From NCBI RefSeq assembly GCF_002240355.1, contig NZ_CP016353.1:6487001-6551000 (forward strand): a stretch of 64,000 bases of DNA. The letters are read 5' to 3'. This stretch comes from Prauserella marina (GTDB lineage Bacteria > Actinomycetota > Actinomycetes > Mycobacteriales > Pseudonocardiaceae). The position numbers were made by a program, and so were the translations under genes. Positions 7,019 to 63,939 of this stretch are shown here, piece by piece (the stretch's first letter is position 1; every line of letters starts with the position of its first letter). The notes under the pieces are model-generated. The model was not told the origin of the DNA, ran no database searches, and was given only the letters and a program-made list of their open reading frames with translations.

Positions 7019-7594
7019 GTGAGCAACCCTCCAAGCTGGCCACCGGTACCGACGGAACCGGTCGTTCCGCACCCGGCGGCGCCTGAACCCGGCAGCAAGC
7101 TCGGTATCCACTTCGACCAGTGCTTCGGTTGTGGCGACGATGTCGAAGGCGGTCTGCACATCCGGTCGTCCGTCGCCGAAGACCTCGTCGTCGAATCACA
7201 GTTCGCCGTCACGAAGGCACATCAGGGCGCGCCCGGCCTCGCGCACGGCGGGCTGCTGGTCTGTGCCTTCGACGAGGCACTCGGTTCCGCGGTCGGCAAC
7301 CTGCTTCGCCGCCCCGCGGTGACGGGCAAGCTGGAGACCGACTTCCGCAGACCGGTTCCGGTCGGCTCGACGCTGTTCATCACGACCCGGTTCGACGGGA
7401 TCGCCGGACGCAAGGTGTTCGTCAGCGCGGAGGGCAGGCTCGACGCGGCCGACGGTCCGGTCGCCGTCCAGGCGAGGGCGCTGTTCGTCACGGTGGGCAT
7501 CGATCACTTCACGACCCACGGCGACGTCGACGCGCTGGAGAAGCTCAGGGACTCCCGCGGCGCGGACGCCAAGGACTGGGACATCAATCCGTAA
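7019..7594 (+). CDS. PaaI-type hotdog thioesterase
   Basis: 191 residues. The hotdog core is visible: HFDQCFGCGDDVEGGLHIR at the start, the helix region GAPGLAHGGLLVCAFDEALG with the conserved HGG, then the strands TGKLETDFRRPVPVGSTL. The family hydrolyses acyl-CoA thioesters in the cytoplasm; the acyl group is unknown. The GTG start is 9 bases after the transporter stop, and its stop codon overlaps the next start by one base (TAATG), so the last two genes are translationally coupled. Confidence 0.85.
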   Translation: MSNPPSWPPVPTEPVVPHPAAPEPGSKLGIHFDQCFGCGDDVEGGLHIRSSVAEDLVVESQFAVTKAHQGAPGLAHGGLLVCAFDEALGSAVGNLLRRPAVTGKLETDFRRPVPVGSTLFITTRFDGIAGRKVFVSAEGRLDAADGPVAVQARALFVTVGIDHFTTHGDVDALEKLRDSRGADAKDWDINP

Positions 7595-8769
7595 TGTTCA
7601 TCCTGCTCGCGATCGCCCTCATCGCGATCGTGCACCTCTACGTGTGGAAGCGGCTCGTTTTCGACACCACGTCGCCGAAATCGAGGGCCCGCAAGGTCGG
7701 CACGGCCGCGATCGTCGCGCTCGTCCTGCTCATGGGCGTCGCGCTCGGCACGGGGACGAGTATCGATCCGGCCATCGCCCGTTGGTTCGCCTGGCCCGGC
7801 TATCTCTGGCTGGCGATGTTCTTCTACCTCCTCGTCGTACTGGTCGTGCTGGAGATCCCCCGGCTGGCGCTTCGCGGCTGGGTGCGCAAGGGCGACAAGC
7901 CTGCCGAACCGGAGAGCACCGCTGACGAACGGGGAGGAGTCACCCGCCGTGTCGCGCTCGCTCGCGGGTCCGCCGCGGTCGCGGGGGTCGTCGCGACCGG
8001 GTTCGTCGGCTACGGCATGACGGTCGCGCTCGGCCCTCCGACGGTGACGAGGGTTCCGATCTCGCTGCCGAGGCTCGATCCGCGAGCCTCGGGCTGCCGC
8101 ATCGCGTTGATCAGCGACGTCCACCTCGGGCCGATCATCGGCCGCTCCTTCACCGAGCGCATCGTGGAACTGGTCAACGCGGAGCGGCCTGACCTCGTCG
8201 CCATCGCGGGCGACCTCGTCGACGGTGAGGTGCGACATCTCGCGCATGCCGCCGAACCGCTCGCCGACCTGCGCAGCACGCACGGCACCTTCTACGTCAC
8301 CGGCAACCACGAGTACTTCTCCGGGTATCGGGAGTGGATCGAACACGTGCCCTCGCTCGGGATCCGTCCGCTGCGCAACGAGCACGTCGACATCGAGCAC
8401 AACGGCGGGGTCTTCCACTTCGCCGGTATCAACGACCACATCGGCTACCAGTGGCAGGATCCCGGCGACGTGGCGAGGGCCGTCGAAGGCAGGGACCCCG
8501 ACAAGGCACTCGTGATGCTGGCTCACCAGCCGGTCGACATCACTCCCGCCGTCGAGCACGGCGTGGACCTGATGCTCGCGGGGCACACCCACGGCGGGCA
8601 GCTCTCGCCGTTCGAGCTGATCGTCAGCCTGCAACAGGGCGCCGTCGCCGGGTCGTACCAGTTCGACGACACGAAGATGTACGTCACGAGGGGCGCGGGC
8701 TTCTGGGGTCCACCGGTCAGGGTCGGCGCGCCACCCGACATCACGATCGTCGAACTGCGACCTTCCTGA
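7594..8769 (+). CDS. Membrane-anchored metallophosphoesterase
   Basis: 391 residues. Three to four hydrophobic segments cover about residues 1-150, with an RRVALARG stretch before the last. A calcineurin-like phosphoesterase domain follows with all metal-binding motifs: SDVHLGP, GDLVDG, GNHE, the histidine in MLAHQP, and GHTHGG. This arrangement matches the YkuE/YaeI group, which cleaves phosphodiester or pyrophosphate bonds at the membrane, often in lipid precursors. Its substrate is not evident. It overlaps the upstream thioesterase by one base and converges on pknG with no gap. Confidence 0.9.
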   Translation: MFILLAIALIAIVHLYVWKRLVFDTTSPKSRARKVGTAAIVALVLLMGVALGTGTSIDPAIARWFAWPGYLWLAMFFYLLVVLVVLEIPRLALRGWVRKGDKPAEPESTADERGGVTRRVALARGSAAVAGVVATGFVGYGMTVALGPPTVTRVPISLPRLDPRASGCRIALISDVHLGPIIGRSFTERIVELVNAERPDLVAIAGDLVDGEVRHLAHAAEPLADLRSTHGTFYVTGNHEYFSGYREWIEHVPSLGIRPLRNEHVDIEHNGGVFHFAGINDHIGYQWQDPGDVARAVEGRDPDKALVMLAHQPVDITPAVEHGVDLMLAGHTHGGQLSPFELIVSLQQGAVAGSYQFDDTKMYVTRGAGFWGPPVRVGAPPDITIVELRPS

Positions 8770-56873: not shown

Positions 56874-57178
56874 GGACCGAATTCTTCCATCGGCCAAGGG
56901 CCAACCTCCATCGTCGCCACGGCGTTCGGTCTGACCGTCGTCCGCCGTTTACTGGTCGCCTTCGCTGGCAGGATCGCCTGCGGCGGATAGTTCGTGTGGG
57001 ACCTGCGCACGGTCGCCTGTCTCGTCGACTCGCCGAGCGGAGTTGACAATGTTCGATCCGGCCAGATTACGCGGCAGGATGACTCAAAGCCCGTATAGAA
57101 GATCCCACACAATCGGTGCGCACAAATCATCCACATGGAGGTATCACCTCTCAAGCGCGCCCTGCAAAATCGGTCTAC
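56874..57178. other. Transition into accessory DNA, no gene seen
   Basis: No credible coding frame. From about 57040 the base composition falls and codon use of the following frames changes, so the left edge of the tRNA-Lys-linked accessory region may lie here. I found no third copy of the 41-bp att repeat. Confidence 0.4.
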
Positions 57179-57313
57179 ATGAGAGCTGCTACCAAAAGGA
57201 AAATTGGGCAGCTGCGGGGATACCTGCTTCTGGGGGTCGTGGCCTACGGCTGGTTCGGCGCCAACTTCACACCGCTGTGTCCATCCAGTTCAGTATATGG
57301 GGAAAATTGGTGA
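57179..57313 (+). CDS. Possible 44-residue membrane peptide
   Basis: ATG 57179 opens a 44-codon frame: a basic start (RAATKRKIGQLRG), one hydrophobic segment (YLLLGVVAYGWFGANF) and a short tail. No ribosome site is obvious. Its stop overlaps the next GTG (GTGA), which argues for a coupled pair. Below the length usually annotated; function unknown. Confidence 0.35.
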   Translation: MRAATKRKIGQLRGYLLLGVVAYGWFGANFTPLCPSSSVYGENW

Positions 57314-57414
57314 GCCGCGTGCTTGCCAATATTGGCGGCATCGCAGCATCAATCTCAGCTGTAGCCGCAAGCGCCTCAGCTGTGATCGCGCTGGCCACTT
57401 TGACTTTGAACTGA
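57310..57414 (+). CDS. Possible 34-residue hydrophobic peptide
   Basis: GTG 57310 overlaps the stop of the preceding small frame. The 34 residues form one long Ala/Ser/Ile-rich hydrophobic helix (ANIGGIAASISAVAASASAV then IALATLTLN) with one Arg near the start, like holin-, toxin- or quorum-type peptides. Unproven. Confidence 0.35.
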   Translation: MSRVLANIGGIAASISAVAASASAVIALATLTLN

Positions 57415-57687
57415 GACCGTTAGACTCGGCCTGAACCGCAAGTCACAAAGCTGAGAGTCGTCATCTCTGCCTCAATTGAATCCGACGGCTTTGTGGCACT
57501 GCTTAGCATTTTCGGTGCCAGAAGCAGAGCAGCCGACCATCGAAGGAAATCAGTAATCGACATTACGGAACCGATGATCTCGCCACCCGGCAAATCAAGT
57601 CGCGTACTCGAATTACCAGCGGCCCGCAGACCGGAAGCAAAAGCGACCCCGTCTTGTCGTCGTCATATTGACTAATTATTTGAGTGC

Positions 57688-58290
57688 TCAGCCCCTGTTT
57701 CTGCGCGATCGAGGGTAGGTGTTCTTCTCGCCAATCGTGCCATCAGTCTTATGAATGACGTGCTCAACACCGCGCTGTTTGGCCATCTCACGGCCCTTGG
57801 CTTGCGCCTCTGCCTTTGTCTTAGCAGTGTTCGAAACGCGCTTGTTACCCTCTGCTTTGTTCGCCCAGCCGCCCTCGTACGGGACCGTGTGAATATCGCC
57901 TTCGGTCACGGGTTGCCTCGTTGACCGTCGTCGCCCGGCGGATCGGTTGTCCGGTCGTGGCTGAGACGATTCGTGATCCATTGACAACACAAGCACCGCT
58001 TCTTCGAGACGTCGGACCCTGGCTGCGAGATCAACTCGGAACTCGCTCTCCGGCGCTTGGCCATCGGGCGAGAGATTGGATTCGACGAGTCGTCGAATCC
58101 ACGCGGTTGGCTTGACCCCGGCAGCTTCCGCCATCGCGCGGACCTCGTTCATGACCGAACGTGGGAGACGGATCGAAGTTGAGATCATGGGGTCGTCAAC
58201 CGTCTCCGACTCCCACGTGCCCGTCTCCATCTCCTCGGCGAAGTCGTGCTTGTCGGCGCGCTTTGCAAGTTCGTCGAACTTGTTCGTCAT
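57688..58290 (-). CDS. Ribbon-helix-helix antitoxin fused to a DUF2188 domain
   Basis: 200 residues. An acidic helical start (FDELAKRADKHDFAEEMETG) precedes a ribbon-helix-helix motif (MISTSIRLPRSVMNEVRAMAEAAGVKPTA). A coiled helix and linker (about 85-130) lead to a DUF2188 domain (IHTVPYEGGWANKAEGNKRV ... TKAEAQAKGREMAK), which ends VEHVIHKTDGTIGEKNTYP. The gene overlaps the toxin-like gene upstream (58287), giving a toxin-first pair. The fusion to DUF2188 is unusual. GAGGTGGAG sits just before ATG 58290. Confidence 0.78.
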   Translation of the reverse strand: MTNKFDELAKRADKHDFAEEMETGTWESETVDDPMISTSIRLPRSVMNEVRAMAEAAGVKPTAWIRRLVESNLSPDGQAPESEFRVDLAARVRRLEEAVLVLSMDHESSQPRPDNRSAGRRRSTRQPVTEGDIHTVPYEGGWANKAEGNKRVSNTAKTKAEAQAKGREMAKQRGVEHVIHKTDGTIGEKNTYPRSRRNRG

Positions 58291-58558
58291 CTCCACCTCG
58301 CCTTTCGTTGGAACGCCTGGCGCTCCTTAAGCGTCATGTCACGGGCGGTGACCACATACCAGCGCCCGTCGAGCGCTTCGGAGAGCACCACCAAGAGATA
58401 CCGGCCCGCTTCGCTGGTGCCGAAGACCAACAGCAGATCGTCGCGCCCCGCGCTCGTCAGGCGAGGGCGGGTATAGAGAACATCTTCTACTTCAGTCGGA
58501 TACACATTGTGACGCGCGATGTGCTCTTCGCTCTTTCAGTCCAGAGAATCTCACGCAC
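58287..58558 (-). pseudogene. Toxin-like gene (BrnT/RelE-type) with a frameshift near its 5' end
   Basis: From GTG 58558 the frame reads VREILWTERAK and is lost at about 58526. The next frame continues EHIARHNVYPTEVEDVLYTR and on to RYLLVVLSEALDGRWYVVTA and the end LKERQAFQRKARWR. Joined, this is a complete 90-residue RelE-superfamily toxin of the BrnT-like shape. One missing G in AAG-AGC explains the break. It precedes and overlaps the RHH antitoxin gene. Translation from GTG 58505 would give only the last 72 residues. The toxin is probably inactive unless the base is a sequencing error. Confidence 0.72.
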
Positions 58559-58659
58559 GATCGAGCCTAGCATGATGCAACACGTTGTGGCACGTTGTGG
58601 CACGTCGCATCTGGCTCCGGACGGTTGATCGAGTGAGAGGATCGACTTCGAGGACAGGG

Positions 58660-58976
58660 TTGCTTTTAGACCGGCGCACCCGTGTCGCCGCCACGGCTGA
58701 GGTCGGGGCTGAGCAACTGACCGGCTCGGTCTTCCCGAACGCGCGGGGCGGTCTCCGCGAAACGAACAACCTGCGGCGCGACTGGCGCGCATTCCGCAAG
58801 CGCCACGGTATCGGCGACTGGTTCACGCCCCGGACCTTCCGGCGCACGGTAGCCACCCTGGTCACGGACGCGCTACCCGCCCGCGAGGCTAGCGACCTCC
58901 TGGGGCACTCGCGCGTATCCCATGGTCAACACGGGTGTTCGGCCGCTGGGCTGACCTGCGGCAGGAGTGGTCCTAA
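58660..58976 (+). pseudogene. Tyrosine integrase C-terminal remnant (outer element)
   Basis: The readable segment carries GSVFPNARGGLRETNNLRRD, then FTPRTFRRTVATLVTDALPA and ASDLLGHSR, the second Arg box (TFRRT) and the LLGHS box of a phage-type integrase. Two small insertions (in CCCATGG and ACGGGTG, about 58920-58935) break the frame after SRVS, and the original would have ended RWADLRQEWS at TAA 58974-58976. No start or first Arg box survives and the catalytic Tyr is not seen. It lies just left of the tRNA-Lys fragment at 59099, as int genes do next to att sites. Confidence 0.8.
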
Positions 58977-59022
58977 CGTGTCAGGATAAGAACCGCTTGA
59001 CGCAACCACGGTTCGTGGGGTC

Positions 59023-59041
59023 TGCGGGGGTCGCCCCCGCA
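59023..59041 (+). terminator. Terminator behind the integrase remnant
   Basis: A perfect 8-bp G/C stem TGCGGGGG-TCG-CCCCCGCA followed by AAATTAT, between the integrase remnant and the att repeat. Confidence 0.7.
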
Positions 59042-59098
59042 AAATTATCAACAGAACGACCTGGTCCGCGCGGTCGGCGGACACGCTGCGCCGAGAGT

Positions 59099-59139
59099 GG
59101 AGTGGGCCGCCTGGGACTCGAACCCAGAACCCGAAGATT
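59099..59139 (-). repeat. Left att repeat, fragment of the tRNA-Lys 3' part
   Basis: 41 bp identical to 63863-63903. It contains the last 37 nt of tRNA-Lys (T-arm, variable loop, 3' side of the anticodon stem and discriminator). Sequence similarity ends abruptly in the anticodon loop. This is the classic attachment-site duplication of an element that inserted in the 3' part of a tRNA gene. Confidence 0.93.
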
Positions 59140-59361
59140 CTCCGGCCACGGTTGACGATGCTTGGTCACATCTGCCGATATGCCTCATGATCTGCAAGGA
59201 TCGCGAACGCAAACGTCCACTGAGGCTCGTCGTTTTCGGTCGTCTGGCGTCGTTCTTCGTGGGTAAACTGTGGATTGATCTTGAGGTTAACTGGACTTCG
59301 CGGCGTAGTGTCTACTGTGGAATCCCTGAGCGTCTAGCCACAACCGCGAGCCTTTCACCGG

Positions 59362-59619
59362 TCAACCTGGTTTGGCAACGAAGGTTCCACGACCGTGAGT
59401 GACCCGAAGGAAGCCCTCCTTGCGCAACTCCAGCACTGCTCGCCGAACCGTCACCCGGGCAACACCGTAGATGTCCGCAAGCTCCAGCTCGCCGGGAAGC
59501 TTCGCCCCCGGTTTCAACGAACCTGACTTGACGTCATCGCGGATGTCCGTCGCCACCTGTTCCCATAGCAGGTCAGGGCCATCGTGATCGATGCGCGCGG
59601 AGCGGTCGTTCCAAGACAT
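59362..59619 (-). CDS. GntR-type winged-helix protein, DNA-binding domain only
   Basis: 85 residues. A whole GntR helix-turn-helix is visible: LLWEQVATDIRDDVKSGSLK, PGELELADIYGVARVTVRRA, VLELRKEGFLRVTHGRGTFV. No ligand domain follows. Such short GntR proteins regulate excision or transfer in actinomycete elements. It is divergent from the gene at 59702, and a dyad at 59663-59686 lies between them. Confidence 0.85.
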   Translation of the reverse strand: MSWNDRSARIDHDGPDLLWEQVATDIRDDVKSGSLKPGAKLPGELELADIYGVARVTVRRAVLELRKEGFLRVTHGRGTFVAKPG

Positions 59620-59662
59620 GCGGGCACGTTAGACACCTCATGACGTACGAAGCCTCCCCAGA

Positions 59663-59686
59663 ACATCCCAAGATGTCTTAGGATGT
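59663..59686. promoter_or_regulatory. Candidate GntR operator between divergent genes
   Basis: A 24-bp dyad: ACATCCCAAGA-TG-TCTTAGGATGT, 11-bp arms with one mismatch. It sits in the 82-bp gap between the two GntR-type genes and just before a TACTAT -10-like box, so a bound repressor would block both genes. Confidence 0.68.
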
Positions 59687-59701
59687 ACTATTCTGAACTG
59701 C

Positions 59702-60166
59702 ATGTACGCGTTGCCAAGTTTGCTGCTGGCTGGCCTAAATCTGGTCGTCTTGACCGGCGAACAATGCGACGCCATCACGGACGCCTTGGCTGATGACAAC
59801 GCGCGACAAGCTGAGGTGATGTTCTTCGCCGCCCGGTATCCGGATGAGACCTTCTCAATAGCGGAAGGGTTCACCGAACCGGAGCTGCGATGGGTCGCGC
59901 GCATCCGCACCCTGGGAGAAAGGCTCTACCGGTTGACCCGACCCGTCTATCAGCTCGATCCTGCCGTCGCGTACTTCTGGCAGCAGGTACGAGACCATCT
60001 GACGGAACGCATCGCTGCCGGTGAGTTCGACCGATGGCTACCGGCCCGGCGAACGCTCGCCCGGGAGTACGGCGTCAGCATCCGCACCGTGGACCGAGCC
60101 ATCCGCGCACTCGCAGAAGACGGACGTGTTCTGTCGTTCCCCGGCAAGGGCATCGCGCTTGCCTGA
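59702..60166 (+). CDS. Element-borne protein with a C-terminal GntR helix-turn-helix
   Basis: 154 residues. The C-terminal 75 residues are a GntR winged helix (YFWQQVRDHLTERIAAGEFD, LPARRTLAREYGVSIRTVDR, AIRALAEDGRVLSFPGKG). The N-terminal part (GLNLVVLTGEQCDAITDALA) is helical and unassigned; it may bind a partner. Start ATG 59702, leaderless-like: the -10 ends about 12 bases before. Confidence 0.75.
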   Translation: MYALPSLLLAGLNLVVLTGEQCDAITDALADDNARQAEVMFFAARYPDETFSIAEGFTEPELRWVARIRTLGERLYRLTRPVYQLDPAVAYFWQQVRDHLTERIAAGEFDRWLPARRTLAREYGVSIRTVDRAIRALAEDGRVLSFPGKGIALA

Positions 60167-60259
60167 TCAGGGGCGGAGATGCCGGCCGGGACCGTGTCGT
60201 TCTGGCGTAGCCTGATCGAGCCGGAGATACTGGATGAACACGAGGAAGGAGCAACGCTG

Positions 60260-60928
60260 ATGGATGGGGACGTGCGGTTCGACCGACCGCTGATGACCAT
60301 GTCCGACGCGGGGCGTCACCTCGGAATCCCTCGGCAAACCTTCCACCGCTGGGCACGCGGGTACGAGCGCGGAGGTCCGCTGCTCCACGTGATCGGCACT
60401 GACAGCATGCGCCGTGCGACGGTTCCCTTCGTAGCTCTCGCCGAGGCGTGGGTACTGGAAGGGCTACGGCAAGCCGGTGTCCATCCCCAGCGGATTCGTC
60501 CCGCGCTGAAGCAACTCCAGAAGGAGTTCGGGCGCGAGTACGTGCTCGTCTCACCCGCGCTGGTTACCGATGGAATCTCGGTGCTGTGGGACTTTTCGCG
60601 CACCAAGGCCGGAGCGGGACTGATCGAGGGCGGAACCGGTCAGACGGTGATCCGCGAAATTGTTCAGGACTACCTGACCTACGTCGGCTTTGGTGCCGAC
60701 GAGTACCCGAACCTACTGAAGCTCAAGCCGTTCGAACCCGCCAAGGTCGTCGTCGACCCGTACCGCTCGTCGGGGCAACCGGTGTTCGAAGGTACTGGGG
60801 TGAAAGTCGCCAACGTGGCCGCAATGCTGAAGGCTGGTGAAGATCCTGCCGTCGTCGCCGAAGAACACGGAGTCGGACTCGACGCCGTCAGGGCCGCCGC
60901 ACGCATCCTCCTGGGCCGCGCCGCCTGA
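60260..60928 (+). CDS. DUF433-type antitoxin with an N-terminal helix-turn-helix
   Basis: 222 residues from ATG 60260 (GAAGGAG upstream; the frame stays open from 60179). An N-terminal MerR-like or excisionase-like helix (SDAGRHLGIPRQTFHRWARG) is followed by a C-terminal DUF433 domain (VVVDPYRSSGQPVFEGTGVK, then AEEHGVGLDAVRAAARILLG). DUF433 proteins are VapB-like antitoxins paired with DUF5615 toxins, as here. It overlaps the toxin frame by up to 92 bases. Confidence 0.82.
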   Translation: MDGDVRFDRPLMTMSDAGRHLGIPRQTFHRWARGYERGGPLLHVIGTDSMRRATVPFVALAEAWVLEGLRQAGVHPQRIRPALKQLQKEFGREYVLVSPALVTDGISVLWDFSRTKAGAGLIEGGTGQTVIREIVQDYLTYVGFGADEYPNLLKLKPFEPAKVVVDPYRSSGQPVFEGTGVKVANVAAMLKAGEDPAVVAEEHGVGLDAVRAAARILLGRAA

Positions 60929-61334
60929 GTTCTACCTAGACGAGAACGCGGTCACCAAGACAGTACGGAAGCTGTTGATCGACCTCGGCTACCGCTGCCA
61001 CACACCCCCGGAAGTGTTCGGCACCCGCGCCGAATCCCTGGGCGCCGAGGACACCACATGGCTGAGCAAAATCGCGGGAAGCGGCTGGGTCGTCCTCAAC
61101 CGGGACGCCAAAATCATGGAACGCCCCGAAGAACTGGCCGCATACCGCGCCGCGAAAGTCCACATGTTCTACCTGCCAGGCGAAGCAACCCGAGCCCACC
61201 TAACCCAACTGGTGTCAGGAAACCTCCGCGACATCATCACACGCGCAACAGACCGAACCCCGGAAGTCTGGCGCATCACTAACCACGGCGTCGAACGATT
61301 CGTTATCAAGAAACCACGCTCTCGCGGGAAGTAG
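60837..61334 (+). CDS. DUF5615-type PIN-like toxin
   Basis: 165 codons from GTG 60837, but the recognisable domain begins only after the antitoxin stop: FYLDENAVTKTVRKLLIDLG, then LGAEDTTWLSKIAGSGWVVL NRDAKIM. LDEN and NRD carry the acidic metal ligands of the PIN-like fold. No ATG, GTG or TTG lies between 60837 and the domain start, so translation either begins inside the antitoxin gene or by a frameshift from it. The toxin is expected to cleave RNA. C-terminus TNHGVERFVIKKPRSRGK is basic. Confidence 0.78.
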   Translation: MKILPSSPKNTESDSTPSGPPHASSWAAPPEFYLDENAVTKTVRKLLIDLGYRCHTPPEVFGTRAESLGAEDTTWLSKIAGSGWVVLNRDAKIMERPEELAAYRAAKVHMFYLPGEATRAHLTQLVSGNLRDIITRATDRTPEVWRITNHGVERFVIKKPRSRGK

Positions 61335-61784
61335 GGCCGCCAAGCGCTCCACAACATTCAGCGCAGAAGTTGAAACAGCGACCCCTTGACCTTATTCCTT
61401 GCCCCTACAGCCTGCGCGGATATACCTGAATTGAAGTCTGACCTGCGTTTATATATTCCACTGTTTCTGACCCTTTGCCGTGCGCTGCGTGTGCCATGTG
61501 GCATGAATGTGGCATGGCGACACGGGCAGACTTGGCCCACACCCGCTTAACCTGTCGTTTGAGCTGCGACAGAACGTCTGGCCAGCGGTCCTACCGATAA
61601 CGATCAAGTCTCGTAGCTGCCTCGCGGTTAACGCACAGTACACAGCGCACGACAAGCGCATCGACATGGGAAGAAGCTGGGCTAGACGGCGGTCGGCGCG
61701 CAACCCGACACCCAGCAGAAGAACGGTCGACTCACGTAAGCGAGCGACTACGAAGAGTACCGACGCGAGGAGTGCTGCCGCCCG
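61335..61784. other. Intergenic stretch inside the element, no gene seen
   Basis: The open frames on both strands have poor codon bias and no ribosome sites. A short direct repeat TGTGGCATG-AA-TGTGGCATG lies at 61496-61515. The promoter of the two-gene module should be in the right part. Confidence 0.4.
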
Positions 61785-62771
61785 ATGGCAAAGCATGCTT
61801 ACGTTGCTTACCGCCTGACCGTGAGCAGGAACCGTCAGCCGGAAGATGCGCTTGATGTCGGCAATGTCGACGGGAAAGGGTCCGACCTATTGGCCTTGTT
61901 CCATGGGTTCCTGCGCGACGTCAGCACGTCCGCTCTGCGCGACAATCGGTATGAGCGGTACTTGAATGTGTCGAACCTGGCCGCTACTGGGCGGACGGTG
62001 CGATTTGAGGCGCACCACGGCCGTTTTGGCACAACAGGGCAGCTTGTCGACACCTTGAGCGGTGTAACAACACACGAGTTCGACGAAGACGAATCTCCTG
62101 TCTCAGTGACTCGAAATATTCTTGCCAGCCCCTCCTCGGGCCGTTGGGCAATATTCCTTGCGGAGCGATATGGGGGCCGAGGCGCAGCCTCGATGGTTCT
62201 TAGTCAATTCAAGCGCGCATTTAGGCGGCGCTTCGATTCCGCAGACCTGCTAGTCAAGCACGAGGGTCTCATGGATTCGGACGCATGGGAAAAGTTCATT
62301 GAATCGGCCGAGATGACGGCGCTTGAGATCAAGCGCTTCGGTCTATCTTCGGATAGAAGTCATCCAATGGCCGAAAAGACCGTGGGGAAGATCGTAACCC
62401 AGGTCAAGCCGAACTGGGGAGAGAAGAAGTTTCCGCGAAGGCTGCGTGACGCGATCATTGACGGCGACGTGCGAGCTCAGGAACTGGTCGGGATGCCTGC
62501 CCTTGATGCAGACGAGGTCGAAGCAGTCCTTGAAGATGGCAATCAGCAGCGTCGTCTCCTCATCGGCCAAGCCGCCGTCCCGATCCTGGCCTACCCCATC
62601 GCGGAAGACCGCGACGAGCGCCCAGCAGACGCCCAGGTCTATGCGGCGATGGAAGAAAAAGTGTCAGAGGTCAATGGCAAACTGGGCTTGAAGTTGCCGT
62701 ATGACTGGAAGGCAGGTCAATGGTCGGACGAGGCGCTCAGTGTGAAGCTGGACGCAATACGTGACAGCTAA
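61785..62771 (+). CDS. Unassigned element-borne cytoplasmic protein, first gene of a two-gene module
   Basis: 328 residues, soluble and mixed alpha/beta. Notable stretches are HAYVAYRLTVSRNRQPEDAL at the start, GWAIFL-like strand RWAIFLAERYGGRGAASMVL, and KKFPRRLRDAIIDGDVRAQE in the second half. I recognise no family or catalytic motif. Codon use is less GC-biased than the chromosome. It overlaps the next gene by 11 bases, so the two products are made together. Cargo of a mobile element with a membrane partner suggests a defence or abortive-infection function, but this is a guess. Only distant resemblance in layout to Kiwa (soluble KwaB with four-helix KwaA, in the other order). Confidence 0.7.
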   Translation: MAKHAYVAYRLTVSRNRQPEDALDVGNVDGKGSDLLALFHGFLRDVSTSALRDNRYERYLNVSNLAATGRTVRFEAHHGRFGTTGQLVDTLSGVTTHEFDEDESPVSVTRNILASPSSGRWAIFLAERYGGRGAASMVLSQFKRAFRRRFDSADLLVKHEGLMDSDAWEKFIESAEMTALEIKRFGLSSDRSHPMAEKTVGKIVTQVKPNWGEKKFPRRLRDAIIDGDVRAQELVGMPALDADEVEAVLEDGNQQRRLLIGQAAVPILAYPIAEDRDERPADAQVYAAMEEKVSEVNGKLGLKLPYDWKAGQWSDEALSVKLDAIRDS

Positions 62772-63261
62772 ATGGTCTTTCACTCGTATCTTGCGCGACC
62801 ATGTCAATACACTTGTCGACGCCCGTTACGACCCACCCAGGACGCGCAAGCGTGACCTTGTTGCCTTTTATGGGTTCCCCATCGCACTCGGCGCAGTATG
62901 CCATATAGCAGACTTTAGGATTCGCGGCCTGGAGGGGATACTAAGTGGAGTTTCCATATATGCAGCACTTTTATTCGGTCTTTTAGTACAGTTGTTTCAA
63001 TTGAAAGTTCGACTTCTATCCGAAGAAAGAGACCGATTTGACACCGTGCGCCTGAACGACGAACTGGAGTCCAACGTTTCTTATGCGGTATTTATGGGCG
63101 TTACCACAACAGCCTTGCTAATATTTGCCGTTGCAGTAACAGAAAAAGATCACCCCGCATCCTTATGGCTTAGTGCTGTAATAGTCGCATTTGTCGTACA
63201 TCTACTACTAACGCTCTTTATGGTGCTTAAAAGAGCCCGGTCTGTGTACAAGGATCTGTAG
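62761..63261 (+). CDS. Four-helix membrane protein, second gene of the module
   Basis: 166 residues. Four hydrophobic helices: LVAFYGFPIALGAVCHIADF, ILSGVSIYAALLFGLLVQLF, YAVFMGVTTTALLIFAVAVT and LWLSAVIVAFVVHLLLTLFM. Between helices 2 and 3 is a charged cytoplasmic loop (KVRLLSEERDRFDTVRLNDE). Many A/T-ending codons (ATA, TTA, GTA) mark it as foreign. GTG 62761 lies within the end of the upstream gene. It resembles membrane effectors of defence pairs, which breach the membrane when triggered; no family named. Confidence 0.72.
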   Translation: MTAKWSFTRILRDHVNTLVDARYDPPRTRKRDLVAFYGFPIALGAVCHIADFRIRGLEGILSGVSIYAALLFGLLVQLFQLKVRLLSEERDRFDTVRLNDELESNVSYAVFMGVTTTALLIFAVAVTEKDHPASLWLSAVIVAFVVHLLLTLFMVLKRARSVYKDL

Positions 63262-63312
63262 TACTCACGAGTGGGTGGCCCTTGTGCCATCCCGTCGACC
63301 TGGCGTAGCCCG

Positions 63313-63391
63313 ATCACGCCGCGTCAAGGGGGCAACCTTCCTCGGCTCCGGCACGTGCGCTGCCAGGCTTGCCCCCTTGGCGCGGCGTGAT
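63313..63391. repeat. Large inverted repeat inside the element
   Basis: 23-bp arms (ATCACGCCGCG then TCAAGGGGGCAA, and their complement with one G-T mismatch) around a 33-nt loop. It lies in the otherwise gene-free stretch 63262-63654 between the two-gene module and the integrase remnant. It could be a terminator, a replication or transfer origin, or the end of a lost insertion. Confidence 0.75.
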
Positions 63392-63654
63392 AGCCCTTCG
63401 GGAGGTCGTCGGGATGGCACGCCCTGGGCCGCCCGCGGACCGCAGCGTTCGTTGTTTCCCGGCCATCCCGGAGACCTGCCCGTCCGGCGAGGACATGTTC
63501 TTCTTCTTGTTCAGCGCTCTCTTGCTGTCCTCGGCCTGCCTTGGCTCCGGCCGATGCGCGGGGACCGGCGTCAGCCGCACGCCCCGCGCAGGCTCGGCCG
63601 GAGCAAGAGAGGCTGAGGCCGAGCGGGCGCCGGAGGCGCCCGCCTTGACGAAGC

Positions 63655-63796
63655 GGGTCTGAGAGCTCGGGAGATCGCCGACCAGCTCGGACACGCGCGG
63701 CCTTCGATGACGCAGGATGTCTACCTGGCCCGTAAGGTCGGGAGCAGGGACGCGGCGACGATCTTGGAAGACGTCCTCGGTAAACAGTCCGAGTAG
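63655..63796 (+). pseudogene. Tyrosine integrase C-terminal remnant (inner element)
   Basis: Only the last 46 codons remain: REIADQLGHARPSMTQDVYL, then ARKVGSRDAATILEDVLGKQ and stop. The LGH box and the catalytic Tyr (QDVYLAR) are intact. All upstream parts, including both Arg boxes, are missing, and the sequence to the left is unrelated. Its stop is 66 bases from the right att repeat, the normal int-att spacing. Confidence 0.88.
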
Positions 63797-63862
63797 TCTC
63801 CTGTGGGTAAGATGTGGGTCGATCTTCACGGCGCTCCGAGATCAACCCGCTGACCTGCGGTG

Positions 63863-63903
63863 GGAGTGGGCCGCCTGGGACTCGAACCCAGAACCCGAAG
63901 ATT
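63863..63903 (-). repeat. Right att repeat within tRNA-Lys
   Basis: 41 bp identical to 59099-59139, overlapping the 3' part of the intact tRNA-Lys gene. It marks the junction that restores the tRNA after integration. Confidence 0.93.
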
Positions 63904-63939
63904 AAAAGTCTCCTGCTCTGCCAATTGAGCTAACGGCCC
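63867..63939 (-). tRNA. tRNA-Lys (TTT)
   Basis: 73 nt. The acceptor GGGCCGT pairs with GCGGCCC (one G-U), the discriminator is A, the T-arm is GGGTTCGAGTCCC, and the anticodon loop CTTTTAA gives TTT. It is the integration target of the element on its left; its 3' part is repeated at 59099. Confidence 0.97.

What the first reader, a model, noticed from the sequence alone, without database searches (positions are those of the whole stretch)
57040..63939. Two degraded integrative elements stacked at one tRNA-Lys gene
A 41-bp exact repeat of the tRNA-Lys 3' part lies at 59099-59139 and within the intact tRNA (63863-63903). Beside each copy, on the left, is the tail of a different tyrosine integrase (58660-58976 and 63655-63796), at the usual int-to-att spacing. 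Sequences next to the two att copies differ, so these are separate elements that entered one site in succession. Both integrases are broken, so the cargo is stranded.
Basis: partly seen in the sequence, partly recalled or inferred. Interest (0 to 1): 0.72.

Follow-up and report, generated by a model that had tools for sequence, protein, structure and literature searches.

The report
Decayed mobile element at a tRNA gene
This is the leftover of one bacterial mobile element that inserted into a lysine tRNA gene and then lost its transfer, replication and most of its integration genes; it still carries a folded DNA stretch, shared by such elements across its bacterial family, that is probably a start point for copying the second DNA strand.

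Summary
The 41-bp repeat is real: two places in the genome, up to 3 mismatches. But it brackets ONE element (59140-63862), not two. DNA left of the 59099 copy looks like ordinary tRNA-downstream DNA, with an 88% copy beside another tRNA. The right integrase scrap (63654-63796) is a true tail, homologous to an intact integrase beside the same tRNA in another genus. The left scrap (58681-58922) is an internal piece; its relatives sit at tRNA-Lys(CTT). No third att copy was found. "Stranded" is unproven.

Unexpected: between cargo and integrase tail lies a ~370-bp structured locus (63282-63654). Matches occur in 138 of 200 family genomes, own included, upstream of and on the strand of FtsK/TraB genes (14 of 20 test loci, 0 of 20 controls) and RepSA genes (18 of 18 loci with both). 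26 of 37 predicted pairs covary. Its 3' motif recurs in Streptomyces plasmids and, weakly, in the pIJ101 gap where the sso should lie. Best reading: single-strand origin of a rolling-circle AICE, kept in a deletion remnant. Function untested.

The parts
63866..63939 (-). intact tRNA-Lys(TTT), the integration target
   Evidence: ARAGORN; Rfam tRNA
63863..63903 (.). att copy within the tRNA 3' part (tRNA-side junction)
   Evidence: exact 41-bp repeat
59099..59139 (.). att copy at the distal junction
   Evidence: exact 41-bp repeat
59140..63862 (.). interior of the single att-bounded element
   Evidence: bounded by the two att copies; arm-like repeats inside both ends
59259..59284 (+). arm-like repeat, distal end
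   Evidence: 21 of 26 match to 63803-63828; same arrangement in G002
63803..63828 (+). arm-like repeat, tRNA end
   Evidence: similar stretch in G020
63654..63796 (+). C-terminal tail of a tyrosine integrase (remnant 2)
63282..63654 (+). structured AICE locus, probable single-strand origin (its last bases are lost at the junction with the integrase tail)
63623..63648 (+). hairpin directly followed by CTTGA (3' module motif)
   Evidence: similar motif in Streptomyces plasmids and pIJ101
61785..62768 (+). cargo gene A, 328 aa, no family hit above cut-off
62761..63261 (+). cargo gene B, 166 aa, probably an all-helical membrane-type protein, overlaps gene A
   Evidence: low-confidence model
60179..60928 (+). 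HTH_66 + DUF433 protein (antitoxin-like)
   Evidence: Pfam
60837..61334 (+). PIN_10 domain protein (toxin-like)
   Evidence: Pfam
59362..59619 (-). short GntR-type regulator
   Evidence: Pfam
59702..60166 (+). protein with C-terminal GntR-type HTH
   Evidence: Pfam
58965..59098 (.). tRNA-downstream-like DNA, chromosomal side of the distal junction
   Evidence: 88% copy beside own tRNA-Met(CAT); similar hairpins beside tRNA-Val, -Glu and -Ala in other genomes
58681..58922 (+). internal fragment of another integrase (remnant 1), outside the element
   Evidence: 77-82% to integrase DNA beside tRNA-Lys(CTT) in G003 and G001
57688..58296 (-). CopG-like + DUF2188 protein, outside the element
   Evidence: Pfam (CopG part below cut-off), PADLOC PDC-S16

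Best explanation
One pSAM2-type AICE (actinomycete integrative and conjugative element with a rolling-circle Rep) integrated at the 3' part of tRNA-Lys(TTT). A large internal deletion then joined its structured locus (63282-63654) to the last ~47 codons of its integrase and removed transfer, replication, excision and most of the integrase. Left are both att cores, arm-like repeats at both ends, cargo (GntR-type regulators, a DUF433/PIN pair, an unknown two-gene unit) and the structured locus. In intact relatives that locus most likely works as the single-strand origin: during rolling-circle replication the displaced strand, of rep polarity, folds here and second-strand synthesis starts. Shown: single-element anatomy, integrase homology, association with tra/rep across the family, constant strand, covarying structure. 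Inferred: the deletion as one event, and the origin function.
For: Att repeat at two places in the genome; arm-like repeats; homologous tail next to the same tRNA in G020. Other genomes hold att-like copies at this tRNA 1.1-12.8 kb away: G002, G006, G010, G011. The same-genus genome G002 is collinear on both sides (window 18.4-37.5 kb and 68.0-74.1 kb). Four copies of the locus in this genome: two in elements with FtsK, RepSA (PF20199, E about 1e-149) and integrase on the same strand, two followed by an integrase tail (window; L055). 14 of 20 FtsK loci, 0 of 20 controls. Same strand as RepSA in 18 of 18 loci with both. Covariation in 26 of 37 pairs, 0 of 500 shuffles. G-T type versus A-C type mismatches 90 to 17 favour the rep-sense strand. 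ssDNA fold z -7.8. 3' motif in a gap between rep and the GntR gene of a 10.3-kb Streptomyces plasmid and, weakly, in a non-coding gap of pIJ101 beyond spdA2, the side on which sso lies according to PMC4170104 (passages).
Against: No activity was or could be tested. Three other elements at tRNA-Lys genes lack the locus in the stretch fetched: L029 (the nearest integrase relative), L024 and L026; so the remnant looks like a mosaic, and other AICE lineages do without this locus. L139 and L141 have RepSA but no hit to the profile (L141 has a weak motif). pIJ101's gap shares only the 3' motif (12.3 bits), not the large hairpin, and is not unusually structured (z +0.73); I did not read the mapped sti coordinates. 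A transcribed RNA would show the same covariation; no promoter- or terminator-like site was found, but that consensus scan has little power here.
Confidence: 0.72

Rival explanations
1. Two elements entered the site in succession; the older one left integrase fragment 58681-58922 and lost its own att site.
For: Two unrelated integrase pieces lie within about 5 kb of one tRNA; 58950-58973 resembles the tRNA-side junction 63849-63872 (21 of 24), possibly a worn tRNA end. Accretion at one tRNA is known for AICEs (PMC9513070 and PMC3218068, passages).
Against: No third att copy in 64 kb nor in the genome with up to 3 mismatches; the fragment is not a tail; tRNA-downstream-like DNA separates it from the att copy.
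Confidence: 0.25
2. The structured locus is a transcribed regulatory RNA of the element rather than a DNA origin.
For: Strong covariation and wobble asymmetry fit an RNA of the + strand equally well.
Against: No promoter- or terminator-like site (low power); in Rfam only one match over the locus, far below its gathering score (mir-6579, minus strand, E 0.8); its 3' motif recurs in the rep-to-GntR gap of plasmids.
Confidence: 0.25
3. The locus is a transfer site (clt) or the double-strand origin.
For: It is an element-specific cis locus; CTTGA after a hairpin resembles the pC194-type nick site (recalled).
Against: TraB recognises 8-bp repeats at clt (PMC4170104, passage); that the DNA there is double-stranded is recalled, and would not need single-strand covariation. 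The pIJ101 copy lies outside the vector fragment 8489-1970 that carries the replication functions but lacks sti (PMC11985553, passages), which fits sso better than dso.
Confidence: 0.12

Closest known systems
AICEs of the pSAM2 kind (RepSA, FtsK/TraB, tyrosine integrase at a tRNA)
   Same: tRNA 3' integration, att direct repeats, integrase tail beside the tRNA; two elements of the same genome carry RepSA, FtsK and integrase together with the locus
   Different: here tra, rep, xis and most of int are gone
Defective AICEs and decayed remnants at accretion sites (PMC9513070)
   Same: att-bounded remainder of an AICE at a tRNA hotspot
   Different: only one att-bounded unit; no FtsK gene, so below that paper's DAICE definition
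Single-strand origins: pIJ101 sti/sso; ICEBs1 sso1 (PMC4595007)
   Same: non-coding, fixed strand relative to rep, several stem-loops; 3' motif shared with pIJ101's candidate gap
   Different: a large covarying hairpin (module 1) not found in pIJ101; activity untested

Membership tests
AICE (intact) | tyrosine integrase next to an att site in a tRNA | tested here: met
   tail only, 69 bp from tRNA-Lys
AICE (intact) | FtsK/TraB transfer gene and replication initiator inside the element | tested here: not met
   none among the 6 larger ORFs of 59140-63862 scanned with Pfam
att-bounded AICE remnant | direct repeats at both ends with the target tRNA intact | tested here: met
tandem (accreted) elements | at least three att copies or two att-bounded units | tested here: not met
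   two copies only
single-strand origin | non-coding region with several stem-loops | tested here: met
   non-coding by reading of the ORF lists, not by a coding test
single-strand origin | fixed strand relative to the rolling-circle rep gene | tested here: met
   18 of 18 loci holding both
single-strand origin | sequence relation to a mapped sso | tested here: inconclusive
   3' motif in a pIJ101 gap, mapped coordinates not read
single-strand origin | orientation-specific conversion of single-stranded to double-stranded DNA | not testable with these tools
   needs a bench assay

The most novel reading that the evidence does not exclude
The locus is a previously uncatalogued class of single-strand origin shared by pSAM2-type elements across a bacterial family. 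Its hairpin-CTTGA module is an actinobacterial origin core also used by Streptomyces plasmids, and may double as a place near which elements break and collapse into cargo-bearing remnants.
Probability: 0.27. Interest if true: 0.68.

Novelty: new variant of a known kind. Interest (0 to 1): 0.5.

Why it matters
As an element the finding is ordinary: AICE integration, accretion and decay at tRNA genes are documented. The locus inside it could give a sequence handle on how AICEs of this family convert single-stranded replication intermediates to duplex DNA; the listings of my searches of the held library showed no paper mapping such a site in these elements (many relevant papers, the pMEA300 ones among them, are not held). 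It is also a marker for finding decayed AICEs that have lost the genes normally used to detect them.

Tried and rejected
Cargo genes A and B as a known defence system: no PADLOC hit, no NCBIfam or Pfam hit above cut-off. AlphaFold2 on two-sequence alignments gave mean pLDDT 39 and 60; I ran no fold search on such models. Gene A in viral contigs: none. The locus as a phage feature: one matching stretch in viral contigs. The window copy in plasmids: none; other copies gave short partial matches (4, 3 and 13 records). The locus across the class: 31 of 246 genomes at E <= 0.001, own included; all other printed matches are short and weak, 46 bits or about that or less, with 2 candidates scored per genome, so the full locus looks limited to the family at this sensitivity. 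My first motif regex was wrong and was repeated correctly; the motif search was not run on the 20 control regions. An empty tRNA-Lys(TTT) site was not sought systematically.
Full report
What was checked. The window is G000:C1:6487001-6551000 of a 6.99-Mb genome. The only named organism among the gene A relatives is Saccharothrix obliqua, which points to the Pseudonocardiaceae; I name that family by inference. The 41-bp repeat is exact and occurs nowhere else in the genome with up to 3 mismatches. The tRNA-Lys(TTT) is intact on the minus strand, so its 3' side faces left and an element integrating there must lie to the left.

One element, not two. Inside each att copy lies a 26-bp repeat, 21 of 26 identical, 120 bp inside the distal copy and 35 bp inside the tRNA copy; G002 shows the same layout, and similar sequence is seen in G010 and G020. 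I read these as integrase arm sites (inference). The DNA left of the distal copy, 58965-59098, is 88% identical to DNA beside the genome's own tRNA-Met(CAT) and has a 30-bp match near tRNA-Ala (L121). Of 14 other-genome loci brought in by this stretch (L106-L119), 4 have a tRNA directly beside the match (Val twice, Glu, Ala), with hairpins of the same layout; 1 has a tmRNA and 9 have neither. G011 shows the same flank left of its own att copy, and G010 a weaker match. It is therefore most simply the original downstream DNA of the tRNA. No third att-like copy was found in 64 kb.

The two integrase pieces. The right piece ends with a stop codon 69 bp from the tRNA. It is 65% identical over 51 residues to the C-terminus of a 398-aa open frame in G020, which sits beside tRNA-Lys(TTT) with an excisionase-like gene upstream (my reading; no family search). 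The left piece matches integrase DNA beside tRNA-Lys(CTT) in G001 (82% over 212 bp) and G003 (77% over 243 bp), only over 58681-58922. It stops before the C-terminal end seen in G001 and lies outside the att-bounded unit. The genome holds no intact close relative of the right integrase: the best full-length match is 38% with a stop inside.

The site in relatives. G002 is collinear with the window at 18.4-37.5 kb and at 68.0-74.1 kb, so the locus is the same. At its tRNA-Lys(TTT) G002 carries a different 1.1-kb att-bounded scrap. Att-like second copies also lie 9.9-12.8 kb from the tRNA in G006, G010 and G011. I met no clean empty site but did not search for one systematically.

The structured locus. 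The stretch 63262-63660 has a 95%, an 81% and a 74% copy in the same genome and matches in 138 of 200 family genomes, own included, 39 of 46 genera, at E <= 0.001 (at most 3 candidates were scored per genome, and matches near the limit may be chance). From 68 non-overlapping profile hits in the loci then held, 48 were long and distinct enough to align; 379 columns are filled in at least half of them. For an independent test I took 20 FtsK/TraB loci beside which one search had printed no copy: 14 hold the locus or part of it, always on the FtsK strand and 2.6-10 kb upstream; the six without are four short contigs (L124-L127), L139 and L141; none of 20 control regions has it. The controls are arbitrary stretches, most of them about 200 kb from an element locus, seven in genomes of the test set and the rest in other genomes of the family. 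Among the 20 loci L085-L104, fetched because they contain a copy, 10 have an FtsK hit, all on the same strand, 3 only Rep or integrase, and 7 no core gene in the 7.5-12 kb fetched. RepSA was found in 19 of the 20 FtsK loci. In all 18 loci with both locus and RepSA (16, two own-genome elements) the strands agree. The two own-genome elements hold locus, FtsK, RepSA and integrase in this order; I did not map their att sites. Elements L024, L026 and L029 at tRNA-Lys genes have more distant Rep or FtsK genes and no locus in the stretch fetched.

Structure. On 42 of the 48 copies (6 incomplete ones dropped; alignment A1) 37 pairs are predicted and 26 have changes on both sides that keep the pair; shuffles give 13.2 (sd 1.9), 0 of 500 reach 26, and slid structures give 7-12. 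G-T type mismatches outnumber A-C type 90 to 17, or 71 to 16 without one pair dominated by U-G, so the functional strand is the one that carries the rep sense. The window copy folds as single-stranded DNA with z -7.8. The 3' module is a GC hairpin followed directly by CTTGA; 42 distinct places were found in the loci searched, the window copy being the most divergent after CTTGA, then pIJ101 and L141.

Why a single-strand origin. The same 3' motif lies, on the rep strand, in a non-coding gap between rep and the GntR gene of a 10.3-kb Streptomyces plasmid; a 20.7-kb plasmid with the same Rep protein has it too (the replication type of this Rep was not tested). A weak copy (12.3 bits; best of 200 random Markov sequences 6.8) lies in pIJ101 at 7272-7318, in the gap beyond the 135-aa spdA2 frame at 7970-8377, on the strand of the long frame across the record start that I take for rep. 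PMC4170104 (passages) places the pIJ101 sso downstream of spdA2; the coordinates were not in what I read, so the coincidence is by elimination. That gap as a whole is not unusually structured. ICEBs1 sso1 (PMC4595007, abstract and passages) is the precedent for an sso in an integrative element. That pMEA300 has a comparable locus called stf is recalled, not read.

How the remnant arose. In the window the locus stops within about ten bases after CTTGA and the integrase tail begins; L096 also passes into integrase sequence shortly after CTTGA, whereas L055 runs through the 3' end of the locus before the tail. Deletion from the locus to the integrase, removing tra and rep, explains all three; the event itself is inferred.

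Cargo. Genes A and B overlap by a few bases and all seven relatives of gene A (L031, L041-L046) keep a gene B relative next to it, so they form a conserved two-gene unit of unknown function. The DUF433/PIN pair also occurs in L104 (82% and 72%), a locus that holds both a tRNA-Lys(TTT) and the structured locus.

Noticed in passing
L054 6159-6316 (G000:C1:5766159-5766316): 93% copy of window 59127-59284 (distal end with the arm-like repeat) near an element that has another integrase and ends beside ychF; perhaps a fossil att arm.
   Followed up: partly
window 61785-63261: Conserved two-gene unit (328-aa protein plus helical 166-aa protein) with no family assignment; gene A matched in 7 of 200 family genomes, own included.
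   Followed up: partly
window 58965-59098; L120 9707-9866; L121 6973-7002: Hairpin-rich unit found downstream of some tRNA genes, in these three places with a tRNA-end-like GAGTGGnCC at its far side.
   Followed up: partly
window 58950-58973 and 63849-63872: 21 of 24 match next to an integrase scrap; may be a worn tRNA end from a lost older insertion.
   Followed up: partly
window 63644-63656; L096 copy: Two remnants pass from the locus into integrase sequence shortly after the CTTGA of the 3' module; exact breakpoints uncertain.
   Followed up: no
L085, L086, L089, L093, L100: Two copies or partial copies of the locus within about 0.5-2 kb of each other.
   Followed up: no
L163 (NZ_CP109466.1): 16-kb circular Streptosporangium plasmid with a divergent partial copy of the locus on the strand of its FtsK-like gene.
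   Followed up: partly
window 57688-58505: CopG-like/DUF2188 protein with a weak BrnT-like neighbour (E 0.017), a possible toxin-antitoxin pair outside the element.
   Followed up: no
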